Below are positions 506 through 20,473 of a DNA stretch of 38,250 bases, in pieces. The notes beneath the pieces were generated by a model. That model saw nothing but the letters and a program-made list of their open reading frames with translations. It searched no databases and was not told the origin of the DNA. A program made the position numbers and the translations under genes. Origin of the DNA: Alphaproteobacteria bacterium (GTDB lineage: Bacteria > Pseudomonadota > Alphaproteobacteria > Bin95); the NCBI GenBank assembly GCA_022827685.1, contig JAJEIH010000063.1, positions 1 to 38,250 on the forward strand. The letters run 5' to 3'. Numbering within the stretch: position 1 is the stretch's first letter; each line of letters starts with the position of its first letter.

Positions 506-1537
506 TTAGAAGCTGTATCTCAACGAGAGGGCGGCCCTGGTTTCTTCGATGTCCAGCAGCATGACTCCATCCAGCGGCGCGCGGGCCCTGGCATGATTGA
601 GGCCCAGATTTGCCGACAGCCCTCGCGCGATATCGTATTGGCCGCCGAGCGCCACGGACGCTTCGTCCTTGCCCTCGACACGGCCGATATGGCCTTCGAG
701 GGAAAGGGAGAATGCCCCCGTTTTCGTGCGAACGCCGGCGGAAACATACCGCCGGTCGATGTCCAGCCCCTTCGACGACAAGCGCTCCTGGCCCGCGCCC
801 GCGTCCAGGGTCGTGCTGCCGTAGATGACCTCGCCGACGAGGCTGAGCCCTCTTGTGTCGAACCGCCGCCCGCCGCGCGAAGCGAAGGCGCCCTCCGCTA
901 CCCGTAGCGCCATACGCCAGTCCCTGGTACCGGCCGGGCGCTGGAAGACCACGCCCAGGTCGGGATTGCCGTCTTCATCGACGACAGCGCCGACGACCCA
1001 GGGACCGAAGCGTCCGGTATAGCCGCCGCTCCTGTCCTCCGGAGCGCCGAGGAAACCGTCGAAGGCCAGCGCACCATTCCCGGCGCCGCGCAGGCGCCGC
1101 GTCATTTCTCGCACGATGCCCGAGACATTCCCGACCGACACCGTGCCCCAATAGCTGCCGACGGAGAGCGCCGCATTGTCCGTATAACCGTCGCCGGTCC
1201 CGAACACGGTCGTCGGGTCGGAAGCGTGCTGGCCGAAATAGGAGAGATCGACCCGCCAGCGGTTCTCCAGCTGCGTCAGCGCGTTTGCCTGGAAGTTCCC
1301 GATCAGGCCGGTATCGGTGTCATTGCTGCCCTCCGTGTCAACGCTCCAGCGTGCATCAACGAGACCGGTCAGGATGAAGGTCACGTCGGCGACCTCAACG
1401 GCGAGCGGCTCCTCCATGGACGACAGGCTTTCGTAATTCAGGGAAACCGGCTCGGCCGAGGCGGAGCCGCCCCCGGCCATGCCGGCAAGCACGATCGCGG
1501 CGGGAAGCAGGGTCCGCCGAACCTGGTTCGCTGCCAT
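506..1537 (-). CDS. Outer-membrane beta-barrel (porin-like) protein
   Basis: The 343-residue protein starts with a Sec signal peptide (basic MAANQVRR, hydrophobic core, SASA cleavage site near residue 28). The rest shows alternating polar and hydrophobic stretches with repeated glycine-aromatic turns, typical of amphipathic beta strands. It ends in LRYSF; a terminal phenylalanine is the signal read by the BAM assembly machine. It should therefore lie in the outer membrane, perhaps as a passive channel. Its start codon lies 4 nt beyond the stop of the haloperoxidase-type gene, so the two are probably cotranscribed and translationally coupled. I cannot name the porin family or substrate. The start is supported by the position of the signal peptide. 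Confidence 0.8.
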   Translation of the reverse strand: MAANQVRRTLLPAAIVLAGMAGGGSASAEPVSLNYESLSSMEEPLAVEVADVTFILTGLVDARWSVDTEGSNDTDTGLIGNFQANALTQLENRWRVDLSYFGQHASDPTTVFGTGDGYTDNAALSVGSYWGTVSVGNVSGIVREMTRRLRGAGNGALAFDGFLGAPEDRSGGYTGRFGPWVVGAVVDEDGNPDLGVVFQRPAGTRDWRMALRVAEGAFASRGGRRFDTRGLSLVGEVIYGSTTLDAGAGQERLSSKGLDIDRRYVSAGVRTKTGAFSLSLEGHIGRVEGKDEASVALGGQYDIARGLSANLGLNHARARAPLDGVMLLDIEETRAALSLRYSF

Positions 1538-1541
1538 GACT

Positions 1542-2933
1542 TCAAGCCTTCGCCGGAAAGGTGGAATTGAAGGCGTGCCTGGCGAGCGCGCGCCCGGATT
1601 TCAGCCCCTGGTCGTTGTCTATCGCCCAGTGGACGCCTCCATAGAGGCGGCTCAACCCGTTTTCGTCCGCCATATGGCTCAGGCTGGTCCAGCTTCGGGT
1701 TACGCCCTGCAATTGCGGCCACAGCACCTCATCCGGCGAGCGCCCCGAAAAGGCCACATCGTCCCGGCCGAGGAGCAAGGCAATCATTTCCGCCGCGGCA
1801 GCGCCGAACGTGGAGTGACCGGATGTATAGGCGGGAAATTCCGGCGTCGGGATGTAGCTCCGCCATCCGGGTTGAAGCGCCACGCGCGGATCGGAACTGC
1901 GGAGAGCGGGCGCGCGGACGCGAATAGCGCTTTCCGGCCGCAGGATGTCGTAGTGGTATTTGTTGTCCCAGGCGCAGATCGATGCGTCGCACTGGGTCAT
2001 GCCGATCAGCGCGAAGGCGCGGGCCAGCTCGATGAAGGAGAGGCCCCGGTCCTGCAGGAGCTGCATGGCGATGTAGATCATGTGCCCCGGCGGAGTGATG
2101 CCCCAGGGCCCGTCTTCCCAGAAAAGCGCGATCTCCGATTCGTCGGCGGTCCTGACACTGCTGTCCATGCCCCCGAGGCGGCGGATAGTGTCGAACTCTT
2201 CGGCAAATTCCGGGCTTGCGGCGTCGTAGAATCCGGTCACCCGGAATTGCGGCCCGCTCTTCATCGTCCACGGCCTGATCTTGCCATGGCCGGGATAGAG
2301 GCACCGGTCGAAAGAAGCGAATGCGGGCCCCGGCGACGCGCCATAGAACGGGCCTGTCGGGCTCCATCGCAGCGAATCCGCCCGTCGGCGGTAGCGCCCG
2401 AGATAGTAGTTGACCTCGCTCGGCTCCGAGCCGTCATCCGTGCGCATGTCGAGCACCCGGCGGCCCGCAGCACGGCCCCACTCGGCGCCGAGAGACTTCG
2501 CCTCGCCGTCGGGAAACCGGCTGAGGAAACCGATGCGCTCGAACAGGAACGGTTGCTGAAACGCCTCGGCCGCCGCCGTTGCGAAAGCGATGCCGTAGGC
2601 CACCTCCGGATCCGCCCCGCGCGGACCCTGGCCGATGCCGAAGGGCTCGTCATAGGCCTGGACGATGCCGTTGGCAGCTAGGAAGCCGGCGGCAGTGGCC
2701 AGCCCGTAATTGTATGCGGCGCGGGGTGTCAGAACCCTCTGGTCCCGGACCTGCTGCAGGGCCGCGTCCACCCACAGGAAAACCGTGTTCCGGTTCTGCG
2801 GTTTCAGGATCTGGCTCGTATAGGACGAGCGATGCCCCTGGGAGGCTACATGCGGGCCGGCGCAGCCGGCCAGGGACAAGGTGGAGGCCGCAGCGGCGGC
2901 GGCAGTGAGAAACTGCCGTCTGGTGTGGCTCAT
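1542..2933 (-). CDS. Vanadium-dependent haloperoxidase / PAP2-superfamily lipoprotein
   Basis: The 463-residue protein carries all three vanadate/phosphate-binding motifs of the vanadium chloroperoxidase-PAP2 superfamily. K325 with R332-P333 fits KxxxxxxRP, S371-G372-H373 is the SGH motif, and S428-R429 with H435 and D439 fits SRxxxGxHxxxD. H435 is the expected vanadate ligand and H373 the acid-base histidine. The N-terminus has a twin-arginine signal (TRRQFLT, residues 4-10) and a lipobox LAGC with C24, so it is probably exported folded and lipid-anchored. Known members oxidise halides with hydrogen peroxide or act as acid phosphatases; sequence alone does not decide which. It is the first gene of a pair with the outer-membrane protein. 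Confidence 0.85.
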   Translation of the reverse strand: MSHTRRQFLTAAAAAASTLSLAGCAGPHVASQGHRSSYTSQILKPQNRNTVFLWVDAALQQVRDQRVLTPRAAYNYGLATAAGFLAANGIVQAYDEPFGIGQGPRGADPEVAYGIAFATAAAEAFQQPFLFERIGFLSRFPDGEAKSLGAEWGRAAGRRVLDMRTDDGSEPSEVNYYLGRYRRRADSLRWSPTGPFYGASPGPAFASFDRCLYPGHGKIRPWTMKSGPQFRVTGFYDAASPEFAEEFDTIRRLGGMDSSVRTADESEIALFWEDGPWGITPPGHMIYIAMQLLQDRGLSFIELARAFALIGMTQCDASICAWDNKYHYDILRPESAIRVRAPALRSSDPRVALQPGWRSYIPTPEFPAYTSGHSTFGAAAAEMIALLLGRDDVAFSGRSPDEVLWPQLQGVTRSWTSLSHMADENGLSRLYGGVHWAIDNDQGLKSGRALARHAFNSTFPAKA

Positions 2934-6483: not shown

Positions 6484-6873
6484 TTAGTTGCCCCTGCGGC
6501 CGAACAACCCGCCGAGAAGGCTGCCGCCCCCGACCGGACCGGCCGGTGCGGCGGCCTGGGCCTGACCGGGCTTGCTCAGCACATCGGTGATCTGCGAGCG
6601 GACCATACGCACCCGCACGCCCTCCGCTATCTCCACCAGCACTTCATGCTCGTTGCTGACACGGGCGACGACGCCCATGATGCCACCGGCGGTCACAACC
6701 CTGTCGCCGCGCCGGAGCGCAGCCACGAGTTCGCGATGCGCCTTGGCCTTCTTCTGCTGCGGGCGGATCAGCAGGAAGTAGAACACGACGAAGATGAGGA
6801 TGATCGGCAACAGGCCGGTCAGCATGTCGCCGCCGCCGCCGCCGGACTGCGCGTAGGCCGGTGAGATCAGCAT
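6484..6873 (-). CDS. yajC: Preprotein translocase subunit YajC
   Basis: YajC is a small membrane protein that associates with SecDF. The 129-residue product has one membrane helix at about 18-36 followed directly by the conserved IRPQQKKAKAH segment (36-46) and the GDRVVTAGGIMGVV motif. Residues 11-15 are a glycine run, common in alphaproteobacterial YajC. The C-terminal tail is rich in alanine, proline and glycine and ends in a GRRGN segment. It is the first gene of the yajC-secD-secF-Mth938 operon; the promoter should lie in the 67-nt gap before the MBL-fold gene's 3' end or further upstream. Confidence 0.97.
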   Translation of the reverse strand: MLISPAYAQSGGGGGDMLTGLLPIILIFVVFYFLLIRPQQKKAKAHRELVAALRRGDRVVTAGGIMGVVARVSNEHEVLVEIAEGVRVRMVRSQITDVLSKPGQAQAAAPAGPVGGGSLLGGLFGRRGN

Positions 6874-6940
6874 GGAAGGCCCCTCCGAAAGGACGCGCGA
6901 CTATAGCCGCAGATGCCGCCTGCGCAAGGGTTGGCCCGGA

Positions 6941-7747
6941 TCAGGCCGAGGGCTCGGCGCCGAGGTCGAACACGATGCCTTCGAGCTCGGCGCCCGGGGC
7001 GGGATAACGCGCCGTCACCAGCTGGTCGTGGCCGGGAACCAGCCGGTCGAGCGAGCCCGCAAGCGCCAGGCAGCGCCGATAGCCTTCCACCATCTTCGCG
7101 AGGTCGTAGAAAATGGCGAACGGCCGCTCGTCCGTGACTTCCTCGAACAGGTGGACGGCATCGGAGGCGAGCAGGATCCAGCCCCGCCTGGTGTGGACGC
7201 GAAGCACCGTCTGGCCGCGCGCGTGGCCGCCGATCAGGTGCGACTCGAGGCCGGGCGCGATTTCAACGGCCGGATCGGTGTCAAAACGCAGCCGGTCTTC
7301 ATAGACGAGCTGCACCAGCGCCTGGGTGTCGCGCAGATGGTAGGCATGGCGGAAGGCCGGATGCGTCATGTCCGGCCCGGTGATCGACGCCATTTCCTCG
7401 GCATGCATGCGGAACGAAGCCGCCGGGTAATCGGCGAGATTGCCGACATGGTCGAAATGCGCGTGGGTCAGCAGCACGTCGGACGCCGTGTTCGCATCGA
7501 CGCCGAGCCGGGCCAGCACGGCCGCCGGGTCGTGCAGGAACATGCGCCCGCCTTCGCCGGAAATGTCGGACTTGAAGCCGGTATCGACGATCCAGGTCTT
7601 TCCGGCCCCCGTGATGACATAGGTGAAGAAGTCGAGGCCGGGGATCATCTTCGCCGGGTCGCCGCCCATGAAGGTCGAGCCTTCCGGGCGCTCCTTCTGC
7701 TCGCCATAGCGGATTGCGAAGACGTCGTAGGACGGCAGGCCGGTCAT
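6941..7747 (-). CDS. MBL-fold metallo-hydrolase (N-acyl homoserine lactonase-like)
   Basis: The 268-residue protein has the metallo-beta-lactamase zinc site: HAHFDH at 95-100, H175 in GGHARGQ, and D196 in ASDAVH. The spacing and the GGHARGQT segment resemble the AttM/AiiA-like branch that includes lactone hydrolases, so opening of acyl-homoserine lactones or another lactone or ester is plausible, but the substrate cannot be read from the sequence. No signal peptide is visible, so it should be cytoplasmic. I chose the ATG at 7747, which begins MTGLPSYDVFAIRYG; earlier in-frame starts would extend into the divergent glycosyltransferase gene. It is transcribed leftward, away from the four-gene rightward operon. 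Confidence 0.85.
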   Translation of the reverse strand: MTGLPSYDVFAIRYGEQKERPEGSTFMGGDPAKMIPGLDFFTYVITGAGKTWIVDTGFKSDISGEGGRMFLHDPAAVLARLGVDANTASDVLLTHAHFDHVGNLADYPAASFRMHAEEMASITGPDMTHPAFRHAYHLRDTQALVQLVYEDRLRFDTDPAVEIAPGLESHLIGGHARGQTVLRVHTRRGWILLASDAVHLFEEVTDERPFAIFYDLAKMVEGYRRCLALAGSLDRLVPGHDQLVTARYPAPGAELEGIVFDLGAEPSA

Positions 7748-7785
7748 GCGGGCTTTCTCCGATACTGCTAATGTGCCGCGCCCCG

Positions 7786-11284: not shown

Positions 11285-12163
11285 CTAGCGTGGCAGGCCG
11301 GCCAGCCAGTCGGAGAGCGCCTTGCCGATCTCGTCGGGCGAGTCTTCCTGGATGAAGTGGCTTCCCTTGACCTTGGCTACGGTCTGGTTCGGCCAACCCA
11401 GGCAGAACTCCCTTTGCGGACCGGTCAGGATGGCGCCGGGCTCGGCATCGATGAAGAGCTTGGCGACATCGGAAGCGGCCAGCCACTCGGAATAGGCGCG
11501 CACGATCTCTACGACATCCGCGGGCTCCCCGGAGATCGGGATTTCCCGCGGCCATGTCAGAGTCGGGCGGCGGTCCTCGCCCGGCGCCGCGAAAGGCCGC
11601 CGGTAAACCGTCATTTCCTCTTCGGTTATCTTCCGAAGGATGGAGCCGGGCAGCACGCGCTCGACGAACACGTTCTTCTCCAGCACCATCCCTTCGCCCG
11701 CCGGCGAGCGGAAGCCCTGGAACACGGCCTTTGCCGCCTCGGGCCATTCCTCCCAGGTAACGGGCCGGACGAGCGCCTCCATGTAGCAGAAGCCCCGTGT
11801 GCGGTCGCGATGCCGGTTGCCCCAGTCGAAGCCGAGCGCCGAACCCCAGTCGTGAATGACGAAAACGGCATTGCCGCCCAGGCCGACGGCGTCGAGGAAA
11901 CCGTCCAGATATTCCCGGTGTTCGACGAAGCGGTAGCTGCCGGGTCCGGGGTCGTCGAGCTTGTCGCTGTCGCCCATGCCGATCAGGTCCGGCGCGAGGC
12001 ATCGGGCCTGGCCCGCCACATGCGGCATGATGTTGCGCCAGAGATAGGAGGATGTCGGATTGCCGTGAAGGAAGACGACGGGGTCGCCCTCGCCCATCTC
12101 GACATAGGCCATGCGCTTGCCCTTCACCTCGACGAAGGACTTCGGCAATTCGGCGGCATTCAT
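11285..12163 (-). CDS. dhaA: Haloalkane dehalogenase, LinB/DhaA type
   Basis: This 292-residue alpha/beta hydrolase matches LinB along its whole length, as far as I can recall that sequence. The full catalytic set of haloalkane dehalogenase subfamily II is present: halide-stabilising N35 (HGNPTSS) and W106, nucleophile D105 ([11 protein letters not shown]), catalytic acid E129 (YMEA) and base H269 ([13 protein letters not shown]). Each lies exactly three positions before the LinB residues N38, D108, W109, E132 and H272. The enzyme hydrolyses a carbon-halogen bond to an alcohol and halide in the cytoplasm. It is the third gene of an operon, 6 nt after the enoyl-CoA hydratase-like gene. The natural substrate is unknown. 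Confidence 0.93.
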
Positions 12164-12965: not shown

Positions 12966-13946
12966 CTACTCCACCAGCAGGACGGTCGAACCGGTGGTCC
13001 TGCGTCCTTCCAGATCCTCATGCGCCTTCACGGCGTCGGCGAGCGCGTAGGTCTGGTTGACTTCGATCCTGACTTTCCCGGATTTCACCATGGCGATCAG
13101 CGCTCCGGCGGACTCCTGCACATCCTCCAGCGTCGCGGCGTAATGCGCGAGCGACGGACGGGTGACGAAGAGGGAGCCCTTGGCCGCGAGAATGCCGGGC
13201 GAAAACGGCTCGGCAGGACCGGAGGCATTGCCGAACGAGACCATCATGCCCCGCGGCGCCAGGCAATCGAGCGACTCATCCCAGGTCGCCTTGCCGACAC
13301 TGTCATAGACCACCGGAACGCCGGCGCCGCCGGTCAACTCCCGCACCTGGCGGGCAATGCCACCCTTCGTGTAGTCGATCATGTGGTCGTAGCCGTAGTC
13401 TGCCGCGAGCGCGCATTTCTCCGGGCCGCCTGCCGTGCCGATCACGGTTGCGCCGAGCGCCTTGGCCCACTGGCCGGCAATCAGCCCGACGCCGCCGGCC
13501 GCCGCATGGATGAGGATGGTCTGCCCCGCCGAAACCCTGAAGGTGCGGCACAGCAGATATTCGACGGTCATGCCCTTGAGCATCATGGCCGCCGCCTGCC
13601 TGTCGTCGATCTCGTCCGGCATTTTCACCAGACGGTCGGCGGGCATGATGCGCGCTTCCGAGTAGGAGCCCGGCGGACCCATGGCATAGGCCACCCGGTC
13701 TCGCGGTTGGACATGCTCGACGCCTTCTCCCACGGCCTCGACGACGCCCGCCCCTTCGGTGCCGATGCCGCTGGGCATGGGCAGTTCGTAAAGTCCCGAC
13801 CGGTGGTAGGTGTCGATGTAATTCAGGCCGATGGCCGCGTGGCGGATCAGCGCCTGGCCGGGGCCTGGCTCGCCGACCGTCACCGTGCGCAATTCCATCG
13901 CCGACGGCGGTCCCGGCCTGTCGATCTGTATGGCTTTGACCTGCAT
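12966..13946 (-). CDS. NADPH:quinone oxidoreductase, QOR family
   Basis: The 326-residue protein is a zinc-independent medium-chain dehydrogenase/reductase. It has the N-terminal GroES-like domain with IGLNYIDTYHRSGLY (39-53, a hallmark of quinone oxidoreductases), the GTEGAGVVEAVGEGV segment, and the NADPH-binding AAAGGVG (about 149-155). No zinc-ligand cysteine cluster is present. It should reduce quinones or enones with NADPH in the cytoplasm. It is the first gene of a leftward operon with the crotonase-like and dehalogenase genes, and is divergent, 68 nt apart, from the UGA-containing gene. Confidence 0.92.
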   Translation of the reverse strand: MQVKAIQIDRPGPPSAMELRTVTVGEPGPGQALIRHAAIGLNYIDTYHRSGLYELPMPSGIGTEGAGVVEAVGEGVEHVQPRDRVAYAMGPPGSYSEARIMPADRLVKMPDEIDDRQAAAMMLKGMTVEYLLCRTFRVSAGQTILIHAAAGGVGLIAGQWAKALGATVIGTAGGPEKCALAADYGYDHMIDYTKGGIARQVRELTGGAGVPVVYDSVGKATWDESLDCLAPRGMMVSFGNASGPAEPFSPGILAAKGSLFVTRPSLAHYAATLEDVQESAGALIAMVKSGKVRIEVNQTYALADAVKAHEDLEGRRTTGSTVLLVE

Positions 13947-14014
13947 CCTGCCTCACTCTATGTAGCGTCGTCCCGTTGTTTCGCGCATCGCTGCGAATTC
14001 CGCAAGGAGCATCC

Positions 14015-15226
14015 ATGACCCGTTACGCCGACATGCCGGAAGGCGTGGCCAAGCATCTCGCCCGCCTGCCGCTTCCCGACATCGAGGGCGGCGCGTTCGT
14101 GCCCGGGCCGCCGCTCGCCGAACGCCGGGTCGCCCTGGTTTCCTCCGCGGGCCTCGGCAGGCGCGGAGACCGTCCGTTCGGCCCGGGGGCCGTCGATTAC
14201 CGGGTACTGCCGGCCGATGCGGACGCCAACGACATCGTGATGAGCCATATCTCGGTCAATTACGACCGGACCGGCTTCCAGCAGGACCTCAACATCGTCT
14301 ATCCGCTCGAGCGCCTGAAGGAGATGGCGGCCGCCGGCGAGATCGGCGGCGTCGCTGACCACCACTACTCGTTCATGGGCGCGAGCGACCCCGCGCCGAT
14401 GCAGCCTTTTGCAAAGGATGTGGCCGCGGCAATGCGGGCCGAAGGCGTCGATACGGCGCTGCTGGTGCCCGTCTGACCGAACTGCACGCGCGCCGTGTGC
14501 GCGCTGGCCCATTATCTCGAGCGCGAGGGTATCGCCACCGTCGCCATCGCCCTGGTTCACGAGCATGCCGAGGGGATCGGCAATCCCCGCACGCTGTCCG
14601 TGCCGTTCGAGCTCGGCCGGCCGCTGGGCGCACCGGACAACCCGGAGTTCCAACTCCGGGTGCTGCGCGCCGCCCTTGCGCTGCTGGACCGGCCTGACGG
14701 CCCGGTGCTGGAGGAGTTTCCCGACCCCGCGCCGGAGCCTGCGGATTACGAGGGCTGGGCCTGTCCCGTGTCCCTTCCCCGGCCCGAGGCCGCCCCGGAC
14801 GGCAAACACGAACGGTTCGTCGTCGATGAAGTCGCCCGCCTTCGGCCGTGGTGGGACCTTGCGAGGGAACGGCGCGGGAGGACCACGGTCGGCGCCAGCG
14901 GCTACGAAATCGAGGACGCCGCGAGGCTTGTCAGCCGCTATGCGGACGGCGCGGACCCGGACGACACGGACCCTGCGCGCAAGCTCTCCCGCTCGCTGAA
15001 GCTCGCCTGCGACGACCTGATGGCCTTCTACACCGAAGCCGCCACGGCGCAGCCCGGCGCGGTTGCCTCGCAGGACCTCTCGGACTGGTTCTGGGGTGAG
15101 ACGGCCGCCGGCAAGGCGTTGCTCGCGGTCCGTGAGCGCGCGGCGGGCGAGGACGACAGGGGCATGCAACTTCTCGGCAGCCTGCTCATCCTGCCCAGAA
15201 GCCAGGTCCACCGCGCCGGGGCCTAG
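14015..15226 (+). CDS. GrdB/PrdB-related selenoprotein, in-frame UGA read as selenocysteine
   Basis: One frame runs from ATG 14015 (ribosome-binding site AAGGAG at 14004-14009) to TAG 15224-15226, interrupted only by TGA at 14474-14476. Read as selenocysteine this gives 403 residues with U154-P-N-C157, a U-x-x-C redox motif directly after ALLVPV. The flanking pattern matches subunit B of glycine/sarcosine/betaine and D-proline reductases: HISVNYDRTGFQQDLN and YPLERLKEMAAAGEIGGVADHHYSF before the U, and TRAVCALAHYLEREGIATVAIAL then GIGNPRTLSVPFELG after it. Clostridial GrdB and PrdB are selenoproteins at this site. Residues from about 235 form a C-terminal extension I do not recognise. Redox or reductase chemistry is inferred; the substrate is unknown. 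The usual amino-acid reductase partners are absent here. A premature-stop pseudogene or base error is the alternative. Confidence 0.85.
14474..14503 (+). promoter_or_regulatory. Selenocysteine UGA codon with possible bacterial SECIS hairpin
   Basis: TGA at 14474-14476 is followed by two mutually exclusive short hairpins. One pairs CGCGC (14487-14491) with GCGCG (14499-14503), with loop GCCGTGT at 14492-14498. The other pairs GCACGC (14484-14489) with GTGTGC (14495-14500), with loop GCGCC. Bacterial SECIS elements lie just downstream of the UGA inside the coding region, with a guanine at the start of the apical loop, as in both forms here. SelB would bind the loop to deliver Sec-tRNA. GC-rich sequence forms hairpins easily, so the structure is supportive only. 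Confidence 0.5.
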
Positions 15227-17971: not shown

Positions 17972-18478
17972 CTAAAATGCCTTGGCGCCGATCAATTTCT
18001 GGGTCAGCAAAACACCGACCGCCTGCCCGGACCCGAAGACCATGGTGCAGGCCGCCCGCATCGCGCCCTCGACATCCTCGGGCCGGTCGATCCGCATGGT
18101 CACGAAGCCCATCGCCTCCATCACCGGCTCGACCGCCTGCCCCATCGGCATCTGCCAGGGATTGCCCTCGCCGAAGTCGCCGCGCATCGACACCAGCACC
18201 AGCATCGGGAACAGGCCGTTCTTCACCAGCGAGAACATGTTGACGCAATTGCCGATGCCGGAGGACTGCATGGCCGCAACGCCGCGCGCGCCGCCGAGAT
18301 GGGCGCCGGCAAGCATGGCGATGCCCTCTTCCTCCGTGGTGAGCGGCACGGAATGCATCTCCGGGTCCGCCAGCGACTTGTCGATCAGCACCCTGTGGCC
18401 GGCGTCGGGCACATAGCTCACCTGGCTGACATCGAACTCCTTCAGGACCCGGTAAAGGTCCTCCTGCCAATCGGCCAT
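17972..18478 (-). CDS. TPP-binding subunit, ComD / sulfopyruvate decarboxylase alpha-like
   Basis: The 168-residue protein corresponds to the pyrimidine-binding half of a TPP decarboxylase. The TTEEEGIAMLAGAHLGG segment (about 47-63) contains the glutamate that activates the TPP aminopyrimidine, and SGIGNCVNMFSLVKNGLFPML is family-typical. Separate alpha and beta polypeptides of about 170 and 200 residues are the arrangement of archaeal ComD/ComE sulfopyruvate decarboxylase. The beta partner is the next gene. I chose ATG 18478, which leaves a 28-nt gap after the E1 beta stop; an upstream in-frame ATG at 18580 would overlap E1 beta. Confidence 0.82.
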   Translation of the reverse strand: MADWQEDLYRVLKEFDVSQVSYVPDAGHRVLIDKSLADPEMHSVPLTTEEEGIAMLAGAHLGGARGVAAMQSSGIGNCVNMFSLVKNGLFPMLVLVSMRGDFGEGNPWQMPMGQAVEPVMEAMGFVTMRIDRPEDVEGAMRAACTMVFGSGQAVGVLLTQKLIGAKAF

Positions 18479-18506
18479 CGTTTCCTGTCCTCTCCGGGAG
18501 AAGGGC

Positions 18507-19475
18507 CTATAGCTGCGCGCGGACCGCCGCCGCAATGGCGTCCGGGCCCACGCGCAGCATGTCTTCGAGCGGCTTTGCATAGGGAATCGGGATGCGCGGC
18601 GCGCCGAGCCGCTTCACCGGCGCTTTCAGGCTGCCGAAATGCGCCTCCGAGACGGTCGCGGCGACCTCGGCTCCGAAGCCGCCCACCGAGACGGCCTCCT
18701 GCGCCACGACCAGCCGCCCGGTCTTCTGGACGGACGCCAGCACCGCGCCGCGGTCCCAGGGCCAGAGCGTGCGCAGGTCGATGACCTCCACCGACACGCC
18801 CTCCTCCGCCAGCATTTCCGCCGCAGCGGCGGCATTGCGGACCATGGCGGACCATGAGACCACGGTTGCATCGTTGCCGTCCCGGACGGTCCGCGCGCTG
18901 CCGAACTCGCCCGGCGGTTCGTCCTCGCCGAGCTCCTCCTCGATCCCCCACAGGTCCTTGTGTTCCATATAGACGACCGGATCGTCGCTGCGGATCGCCG
19001 CTTTGAGCAGCCGCAGATTGTCTCCCGGCGTTGCCGGGGCGACCACCGTCAGGCCGGGAATATGCACATACCAGGCCTCCAGCGACTGCGAGTGCTGCGC
19101 GGCGGAGGAGCGCCACATGCCCATCGGCTCGCGCACCACCAGCGGCACGCCGCCCTGCCCGCCGAACATGTAGCGGGCCTTGGCCGCCTGGTTCACCAGC
19201 TCGTCCACGGCGCAGAGCGCGAAATCGGCGAAGCGCATCTCCACCACCGGGCGCGTGCCCGCCAGCGCCGCGCCGACGGCGGAGCCGAGGATCGCCGCCT
19301 CGGAAATCGGGGCATCCGAAATCCTGAGCGGCCCGAACTCCTCGACCATGCCCGCATACTGCCCGAACACGCCGCCGCGCCCGAGGTCCTCGCCGACGGC
19401 CCACACGGTCGGGTCGCGGCGCATTTCCTCGGCCAGCGCCCGCCGTCCGGCCTCCATGTAGGTGGTCGTCACCAT
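18507..19475 (-). CDS. 2-oxoacid dehydrogenase E1 beta subunit
   Basis: The 322-residue protein is a transketolase-type E1 beta subunit of the pyruvate/branched-chain/acetoin dehydrogenase family. Recognisable parts are YMEAGRRALAEEMRRDPTVW, GEDLGRGGVFGQYAG, the segment RISDAPISEAAILGSAVGAAL, and the C-terminal VIDLRTLWPWDRGAVL followed by VAQEAVSVGGFGAEVAA. It forms an alpha2beta2 heterotetramer with the preceding gene and shares TPP-binding and catalytic residues with it. The two genes overlap by 7 nt (19469-19475), so they are translated together. Unusually, no lipoyl E2 or E3 gene follows. Substrate range cannot be read from sequence. Confidence 0.92.
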   Translation of the reverse strand: MVTTTYMEAGRRALAEEMRRDPTVWAVGEDLGRGGVFGQYAGMVEEFGPLRISDAPISEAAILGSAVGAALAGTRPVVEMRFADFALCAVDELVNQAAKARYMFGGQGGVPLVVREPMGMWRSSAAQHSQSLEAWYVHIPGLTVVAPATPGDNLRLLKAAIRSDDPVVYMEHKDLWGIEEELGEDEPPGEFGSARTVRDGNDATVVSWSAMVRNAAAAAEMLAEEGVSVEVIDLRTLWPWDRGAVLASVQKTGRLVVAQEAVSVGGFGAEVAATVSEAHFGSLKAPVKRLGAPRIPIPYAKPLEDMLRVGPDAIAAAVRAQL

Positions 19476-20473
19476 CGGAACGCCGCCTCGCGCGGGTCGC
19501 CGACATCCTGGACATCCGCGTAGAGCGCGCGGTCTTCCGGCCAGTCCGCAGCCTTCGCCTCTTCATAGGCGGCCCGCATCTCCTGAACAGCCGCTTCACG
19601 GTGGCCCGAAAGCGTTTCCCCGGCGACGCCATGCGCGCGCAGCGTGTCGGCGGCGCGGGCTATCGGATCGTCCTTCCAGCGCTCCTCCACTTCTCCGGCA
19701 TCGCGGTAGGCGGCCTTGTCCACGGCCGTGTGGCCGGTCAGCCGCCAGGTCTTCGCCCAGAGGAACTGCGGGCCGCCGCCGTCGAGGATTCGCTCGCGCA
19801 GTTCGGTCGTCACCTCCGCCACAACGTCCACATCGTTGCCGTCAACGGCCCGGGCGGGAATGCCCAGCGCCTCGGCGCGCGCCGCCGGGCCGGGGCCGCC
19901 GGTCATCGCCTCGGTCCGCGTGGTGGCGGCGAAGGCGTTGTCCTCGCAGACGAACAGCACCGGCAGGTCGAAGACCCGCGCCCAGTTCAGCCCTTCCAGG
20001 AACGGCCCGCGATTGACCGCGCCGTCGCCGAAGATGCAGCAGACGATGCGCCGCTCGCCCTTGAGCCGCACCGCGTGGGCCGCGCCGGCGGCGATGTTGA
20101 TGTTGGCGCCGACGACCCCGTTCGCGCCCAGCATCCCGACCGAGAAGTCGGCGATGTGCATGGAGCCGCCCTTGCCGCCGCAATTGCCGCCTTCGCGCCC
20201 GAACAGCTCGCGCATCATCGCAACCGCGGAAGCGCCCTTCTCCAGCGTGTGGCCGTGGCCGCGATGGGTGGACAGCAGCAGGTCCTCGCGCGCGAGGCTG
20301 CCGACCGCGCCCACCGCGCAGGCCTCCTGCCCGATGGAGGGGTGGATGGCGCCCAGCACCAGCCCTTCCTCCAGCGCGGCGACGGCCTGTTCCTCGAAGG
20401 CTCGGATGCGGTGCATCCGCCGGTGCCGGTCCGCCAGCCTTTCGAGGTCGAGATTGGGCCGGGGACCGCTCAT
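19469..20473 (-). CDS. 2-oxoacid dehydrogenase E1 alpha subunit
   Basis: The 334-residue protein is an E1 alpha subunit of the pyruvate/acetoin dehydrogenase group. RIRAFEEQAV, the STHRGHGHTLEKG loop, and the TPP motif GDGAVNRGPFLEGLN are present, followed by NAFAATTRTEAMTGG. It decarboxylates a 2-oxoacid with TPP and would pass the acyl group to a lipoyl E2, not encoded nearby. It heads the operon E1 alpha, E1 beta, ComD-like, ComE-like. The ATG at 20473 is followed upstream by a purine-rich GGGGGG stretch on the coding strand. Three TGTCATG repeats lie 22-49 nt upstream and could be a regulator site. Confidence 0.92.
   Translation of the reverse strand: MSGPRPNLDLERLADRHRRMHRIRAFEEQAVAALEEGLVLGAIHPSIGQEACAVGAVGSLAREDLLLSTHRGHGHTLEKGASAVAMMRELFGREGGNCGGKGGSMHIADFSVGMLGANGVVGANINIAAGAAHAVRLKGERRIVCCIFGDGAVNRGPFLEGLNWARVFDLPVLFVCEDNAFAATTRTEAMTGGPGPAARAEALGIPARAVDGNDVDVVAEVTTELRERILDGGGPQFLWAKTWRLTGHTAVDKAAYRDAGEVEERWKDDPIARAADTLRAHGVAGETLSGHREAAVQEMRAAYEEAKAADWPEDRALYADVQDVGDPREAAFRW

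What the first reader, a model, noticed from the sequence alone, without database searches (positions are those of the whole stretch)
14015..15226. A GrdB/PrdB-like selenoprotein gene hidden by an in-frame TGA
Seen directly: 14015-14473 and 14477-15223 are the same frame, with one TGA and no other stop. The TGA falls in V-P-V-(TGA)-P-N-C-T, giving a U-x-x-C motif. Known: subunit B of clostridial glycine and D-proline reductases carries selenocysteine in the same region. Inferred: this is a selenoprotein in an alphaproteobacterium, lying without the usual reductase partners and with an unrecognised C-terminal extension of about 170 residues. Standard annotation would give two unrelated short proteins (the second starting at GTG 14495).
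Basis: partly seen in the sequence, partly recalled or inferred. Interest (0 to 1): 0.92.

Follow-up and report, generated by a model that had tools for sequence, protein, structure and literature searches.

The report
Selenoprotein with a PrdB-like core
This gene from an alphaproteobacterium really does appear to read one UGA "stop" as selenocysteine, and it belongs to a distinct, uncharacterised branch of the glycine/proline-reductase selenoproteins that carries an extra helical domain and often sits near the selenocysteine-making genes; what it acts on is unknown.

Summary
The reading is right. 14015-15226(+) is one frame of 403 codons with a single in-frame TGA at 14474 (U-P-N-C). Full-length homologues keep TGA there, at identities down to about 43%. 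Three of them, and nine relatives of the core region, have Cys instead, and none of these twelve genomes has selA. The window's genome has selA, selB, selD and tRNA-Sec(UCA). A bacterial SECIS hairpin follows the UGA at fixed spacing; it is conserved beyond synonymous-codon expectation (0 of 1000 randomisations) and its stem is rebuilt with different bases in two paralogous clades. dN/dS is about 0.05-0.17 on both sides of the TGA. Two paralogues in the same genome also carry TGA at this position. The core (about residues 33-224) is PrdB-like; residues 225-403 hold a conserved helical domain with no Pfam, NCBIfam or clear PDB match. The long form is a clade separate from clostridial PrdB and from the short alphaproteobacterial forms. 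In 12 of 24 other genomes it lies within 20 kb of selA. PrdB-type selenoproteins have been known from marine metagenomes since 2005, so this is a new variant, not a new kind. Most likely it is a stand-alone Sec/Cys reductase without the usual pyruvoyl partner. The substrate is unknown.

The parts
14004..14009 (+). Shine-Dalgarno-like AAGGAG, 5 nt before the ATG
   Evidence: sequence
14015..15226 (+). selenoprotein gene, 403 residues with Sec154, stop TAG
   Evidence: full-length homologues; dN/dS
14108..14734 (+). PrdB/GrdB-like alpha/beta core (residues about 32-240)
   Evidence: TIGR04483 E=1.2e-29 over residues 33-224 and PF07355 above its gathering score; AlphaFold model pLDDT 88
14474..14476 (+). 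UGA codon read as selenocysteine 154
   Evidence: machinery
14483..14485 (+). codon of Cys157, the second half of the UxxC motif, invariant in 40 of 40
14488..14504 (+). bacterial SECIS hairpin: 6-bp stem, loop CGUGU at 14494-14498, 17 nt between the UGA and the loop
   Evidence: matches the bSECIS model quoted in PMC13188914
14762..14764 (+). codon of Cys250 in the linker motif GWxCPV (Cys in 35 of 40)
14807..15214 (+). C-terminal helical domain (residues 265-400), conserved in the clade, no known family
12969..13946 (-). divergent NADPH:quinone reductase (NF008024 above cut-off); conserved neighbour within the family, functional link not shown

Best explanation
The gene encodes a real selenoprotein. 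During translation, SelB with Sec-tRNA(UCA) decodes the UGA at 14474 with the help of the hairpin at 14488-14504, and the full 403-residue protein is made. Its core is a PrdB/GrdB-type fold carrying a Sec154-x-x-Cys157 active site, fused to a clade-specific helical domain. Inferred mechanism: Sec154 attacks a substrate (a polarised carbon-heteroatom or heteroatom-heteroatom bond), Cys157 resolves it to a selenenyl-sulfide, and an external thiol or NAD(P)H-linked reductant restores it. The helical domain would supply the pocket or partner surface that PrdA or GrdE provides in clostridia, so that the protein works without a pyruvoyl subunit. Shown here by sequence analysis: Sec decoding signals, conservation, Sec/Cys exchange, the homology of the core and the lack of a recognised partner among the window genes scanned. 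Predicted: the fold. Inferred: the catalytic cycle, the role of the helical domain and self-sufficiency (I would give this last, specific part only about 0.35 on its own). The substrate is unknown.
For: One frame with one TGA. Sec machinery complete. TGA conserved in all 22 sequences of the first alignment and in 37 of the 40 diverse members of the second; the other three are Cys (FITPVCPNCT, FILPVCPNCT) and their genomes lack selA. In the same pattern nine short relatives have Cys and no selA; pooled Fisher p=5e-8 (which counts eight of the nine). SECIS hairpin: 5.46 of 6 pairs in 56 long sequences against 3.52+-0.13 for synonymous-codon randomisation, 0 of 1000 as good; 6 of 6 in the short clade with a different stem (CAGAC/GUCUG) and the same CGUGN loop. 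Purifying selection on both sides of the TGA. Two own-genome paralogues have TGA at the same place. Clostridial PrdB has its UxxC at the same site. The core matches TIGR04483, and the model is confident.
Against: No peptide, selenium-75 or activity data. Three genomes with a TGA form lack selA and have no selB above cut-off: G275, G024, G324. G024 is an incomplete genome (77%), but G275 is rated 100% complete. Absence of GrdE and GrdA rests on searches whose control genomes also gave nothing; PrdA was not searched with its own model. The PDB comparisons of core and extension are weak, so they say nothing about the reaction.
Confidence: 0.85

Rival explanations
1. It is the PrdB subunit of a D-proline reductase (or GrdB of a glycine-type reductase) whose pyruvoyl partner lies elsewhere in the genome.
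For: Best family match is PrdB TIGR04483, E=1.2e-29; same Sec site; some genes may be missing from a 167-contig assembly.
Against: Scores far below the PrdB cut-off (103 against 300 bits); a separate clade with 100/99 support; no GrdE-type or GrdA match in the genome; clostridial PrdB ends without such a C-terminal domain; none of the neighbouring genes scanned is a reductase subunit.
Confidence: 0.1
2. It serves selenium metabolism itself, for example selenium delivery or storage for SelD or SelA, rather than a catabolic reduction.
For: In 12 of 24 genomes the gene is within 20 kb of selA, in two only about 145-149 bp away and divergent, and in several it is near a SelD-fusion gene.
Against: A Cys version persists in three genomes without selA; in the window's own genome it is not next to the sel genes seen; linkage is also expected if the Sec trait and its selenoproteins move together.
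Confidence: 0.15
3. The TGA is a true stop, a sequencing error or a pseudogene mutation, so there are two separate proteins or a dead gene.
For: A standard-code reading gives two ORFs.
Against: TGA shared by dozens of independent genomes; Cys exchange that follows selA; hairpin; dN/dS about 0.05-0.17 after the TGA.
Confidence: 0.01
4. TGA is read as tryptophan or another residue by a changed code.
For: The frame is also open under such codes.
Against: Homologues without TGA have Cys, never Trp; a tRNA-Sec(UCA) with selA, selB and selD is present.
Confidence: 0.005

Closest known systems
D-proline reductase subunit PrdB (TIGR04483), clostridial
   Same: Homologous core over residues 33-224; Sec in a UxxC motif at the same place
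   Different: Scores 103 bits against a cut-off of 300; motif is UPNC instead of UGTC; extra C-terminal domain of about 180 residues; no PrdA seen nearby; separate clade
GrdB / GrdF / GrdH, subunit B of glycine, sarcosine and betaine reductases (PF07355, TIGR01917, TIGR01918)
   Same: C-terminal part of those proteins aligns; PF07355 above gathering score
   Different: Lacks their N-terminal half (profile match starts at about position 270); far below the equivalog cut-offs; no GrdE or GrdA found in the genome
Short alphaproteobacterial 'glycine/sarcosine/betaine reductase selenoprotein B family' proteins (probably the PrdB-type selenoproteins of the Sargasso Sea and GOS surveys, PMC1088965, PMC2398784; this identification is an inference)
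   Same: Sec/Cys exchange at the same UxxC site, same SECIS loop, and two of them in the same genome
   Different: Motif UPVCHQT; no long helical domain; separate clade. Whether the metagenome fragments included the long form was not checked
FarB/FarE of fluoroacetate-degrading Synergistota (PMC10838667)
   Same: GrdB-like selenoprotein proposed to attack a polar C-F bond, with a partner that is not a pyruvoyl proprotein
   Different: Works with a GrdE-like partner and GrdA/GrdC; not compared here by sequence

Membership tests
bacterial selenoprotein | in-frame UGA aligned to Cys in homologues | tested here: met
[quoted passage not shown]
   loop CGUGU, 6 bp, 17 nt, -13.4 kcal/mol (model from PMC13188914)
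bacterial selenoprotein | selA, selB, selD and tRNA-Sec in the same genome | tested here: met
bacterial selenoprotein | selenium present in the expressed protein | not testable with these tools
   needs mass spectrometry or selenium-75
GRDB superfamily (PF07355) | match above the curated gathering score | tested here: met
   28.3 bits against 22; all 40 members match at E below 1
PrdB, D-proline reductase (TIGR04483) | score above the equivalog cut-off | tested here: not met
   103.4 bits against 300
PrdB, D-proline reductase (TIGR04483) | groups with clostridial PrdB | tested here: not met
   long form is its own clade, 100/99
PrdB, D-proline reductase (TIGR04483) | pyruvoyl proprotein PrdA encoded nearby | tested here: inconclusive
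   none among the window neighbours scanned; the genome was searched only with PF09338, whose controls were silent
GrdB, glycine reductase subunit B (TIGR01917) | score above the equivalog cut-off and full length including the N-terminal half | tested here: not met
   41.7 bits against 602; only profile positions 273-402 matched
GrdB, glycine reductase subunit B (TIGR01917) | GrdA and GrdE in the genome | tested here: inconclusive
   no match, but control genomes gave none either

The most novel reading that the evidence does not exclude
A self-sufficient selenocysteine reductase: a PrdB core fused to a helical domain of no known family that replaces the pyruvoyl partner, acting on an unidentified substrate in alphaproteobacteria. 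It would also be a selenoprotein that helps keep the selenocysteine trait in these bacteria, travelling with selAB and selD where fdhA usually sits.
Probability: 0.35. Interest if true: 0.7.

Novelty: new variant of a known kind. Interest (0 to 1): 0.5.

Why it matters
Normal annotation splits the gene at the active site, so the whole clade is easy to miss. It was found at or near full length in about 30 of 385 sampled alphaproteobacterial genomes, and near selA in half of those checked. The 2006 survey (PMC1794560) found a neighbouring fdhA as the only selenoprotein in Sec-using alphaproteobacteria; here a different selenoprotein lies near the sel genes in many genomes, and the window's genome has three of the family. 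Natural Sec and Cys versions of one protein make the question of why selenium is kept directly testable.

Tried and rejected
Rfam gave no SECIS match near the TGA; the hairpin was found by comparing homologues instead. Folding the window stretch alone was no better than shuffled sequence (z -0.21), so a single-sequence fold is not evidence. Foldseek and VIA-align of the whole model and of the C-terminal domain gave no PDB match with E below 0.001; best Z was 7.9 for the core (common Rossmann-like or periplasmic-binding-protein arrangements) and 4.2 for the helical domain; absence of a match is not proof of a new fold. Sequence search of the PDB found no relative of the whole protein and only noise for the extension. 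A functional clue from the window's neighbours (quinone reductase, enoyl-CoA hydratase, haloalkane dehalogenase) was considered: the quinone reductase is kept only within the family and the dehalogenase was not seen as a conserved neighbour in the divergent loci, so no substrate was inferred from them. Literature searches for this long clade, PF07355 or PrdB-like proteins in alphaproteobacteria returned no description of it, only reviews, metagenome surveys and work on anaerobes.

Full report
Observation. The window sequence has ATG at 14015 behind AAGGAG, an open frame with a single TGA at 14474 and a TAG stop at 15224. A standard-code ORF list gives two pieces, 13976-14476 and 14495-15226. 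Reading TGA as Sec gives a 403-residue protein with LLVPV-U-PNCTRAV.

Family. Pfam GRDB (PF07355) matches above its gathering score and NCBIfam PrdB (TIGR04483) matches residues 33-224 at E=1.2e-29, but at 103 bits against a cut-off of 300; the GrdB, GrdF and GrdH models match more weakly and only with their C-terminal part. All 40 members of a diverse alignment behave alike, and none has a credible match over the C-terminal part.

Selenocysteine machinery. The window is contig C157 of a 4.3-Mb assembly rated 99% complete. It holds selA and selB side by side, selD, and a tRNA-Sec with anticodon UCA, each above its cut-off.

Conservation of the UGA. A long-form gene with TGA at this place is present in all 14 searched genomes of its family. 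Twenty-two sequences from the window and named contigs (46-91% identical to the window's) all have it. In a class-wide sample of 385 genomes, 50 had a match, about 30 of them to the long form. Three full-length homologues lack the TGA and have Cys instead, and their genomes have no selA; 24 of 25 further genomes with the TGA long form do. Nine short relatives without TGA at the site all have Cys there and no selA; one of them, in G084, carries a TAG elsewhere in the frame. Exceptions are G275, G024 and G324: TGA present, no selA and no selB above cut-off.

SECIS. Positions 15-20 and 26-31 counted from the UGA form a six-pair stem with a five-base loop, C-G-U-G-N in most sequences. In 56 long-form sequences 5.46 of 6 pairs form, against 3.52 (sd 0.13) when codons are replaced by synonyms, and none of 1000 randomisations reached the observed value. 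In 13 short-form sequences all six pairs form with a different stem sequence and the same loop. Related sequences are not independent, so the number overstates the strength, but the rebuilt stem between clades does not depend on it. The hairpin meets the published bSECIS criteria. Folding the single sequence is not significant.

Selection. Against five close relatives, dN/dS is 0.08-0.17 before the UGA, 0.05-0.15 in the core after it and 0.15-0.17 in the extension. The region after the UGA is therefore translated in this frame and kept.

Paralogues. The same genome carries two further relatives (C109, C74), each with TGA in the motif UPVCHQT. A tree of core regions puts the long forms in one clade (support 100/99), apart from clostridial PrdB and from the short alphaproteobacterial forms. 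Clostridial PrdB has its UGTC at the same site.

Structure. AlphaFold gives a confident model (pLDDT 88, pTM 0.88): an alpha/beta core to about residue 240, a loose linker with a frequent Cys250 (35 of 40), and a helical domain at 265-400. No PDB entry matches convincingly, so the extension is undescribed in the libraries searched, which is not the same as a new fold.

Neighbourhood. In the window the gene is flanked by a divergent NADPH:quinone reductase and a penicillin-binding protein; no recognisable reductase subunit was among the neighbours scanned. The quinone reductase is kept in related genera. In 12 of 24 other genomes with the TGA long form and selA, the gene lies within 20 kb of selA, twice at about 145-149 bp, and in several it is near a SelD-fusion gene. 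This is strong linkage to the Sec trait; it may mean joint inheritance or a functional link.

Function. The shared UxxC and the chemistry described for GrdB and PrdB (Sec attacking a carbon-heteroatom bond; PMC13188914, PMC10838667) suggest a Sec/Cys reductase. GrdE and GrdA were not found, though the controls of those searches were silent and PrdA was not searched by its own model. I therefore favour a stand-alone enzyme in which the helical domain takes the partner's place; this is inference.

Novelty. PrdB-type UxxC selenoproteins were counted in the Sargasso Sea (42) and GOS (235) surveys, and the short forms have an NCBI name. The long clade with its extension and sel linkage was not found described in the libraries or papers searched. 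It is a new variant of a known kind.

Noticed in passing
L061 6001-8446 and L063 6001-8445: Two long-form Sec genes stand in tandem about 22 nt apart, each with its own TGA.
   Followed up: partly
L073 6001-7208; L076 6001-10199: Two homologues look damaged: one frameshifted, one split by about 3 kb of inserted sequence.
   Followed up: no
genomes G275, G024, G324: TGA-form genes in genomes without selA or a selB above cut-off; G275 is rated 100% complete.
   Followed up: partly
L126 4801-6207 and the gene about 145 bp away: Long-form gene divergent from selA-selB, a possible shared promoter region.
   Followed up: partly
window 11288-12163 (-): Haloalkane dehalogenase, NF002938, well above cut-off.
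   Followed up: no
window 1545-2933 (-): PAP2 / vanadium haloperoxidase-like protein.
   Followed up: no
window 18445-19632 (-), 6872-7768 (+), 509-1537 (-): ORFs without a Pfam match (the first also without an NCBIfam match); whether they are genes was not tested.
   Followed up: no
L002 and L003: The two short Sec paralogues lie near enoyl-CoA hydratase-like genes, identified by eye only.
   Followed up: no
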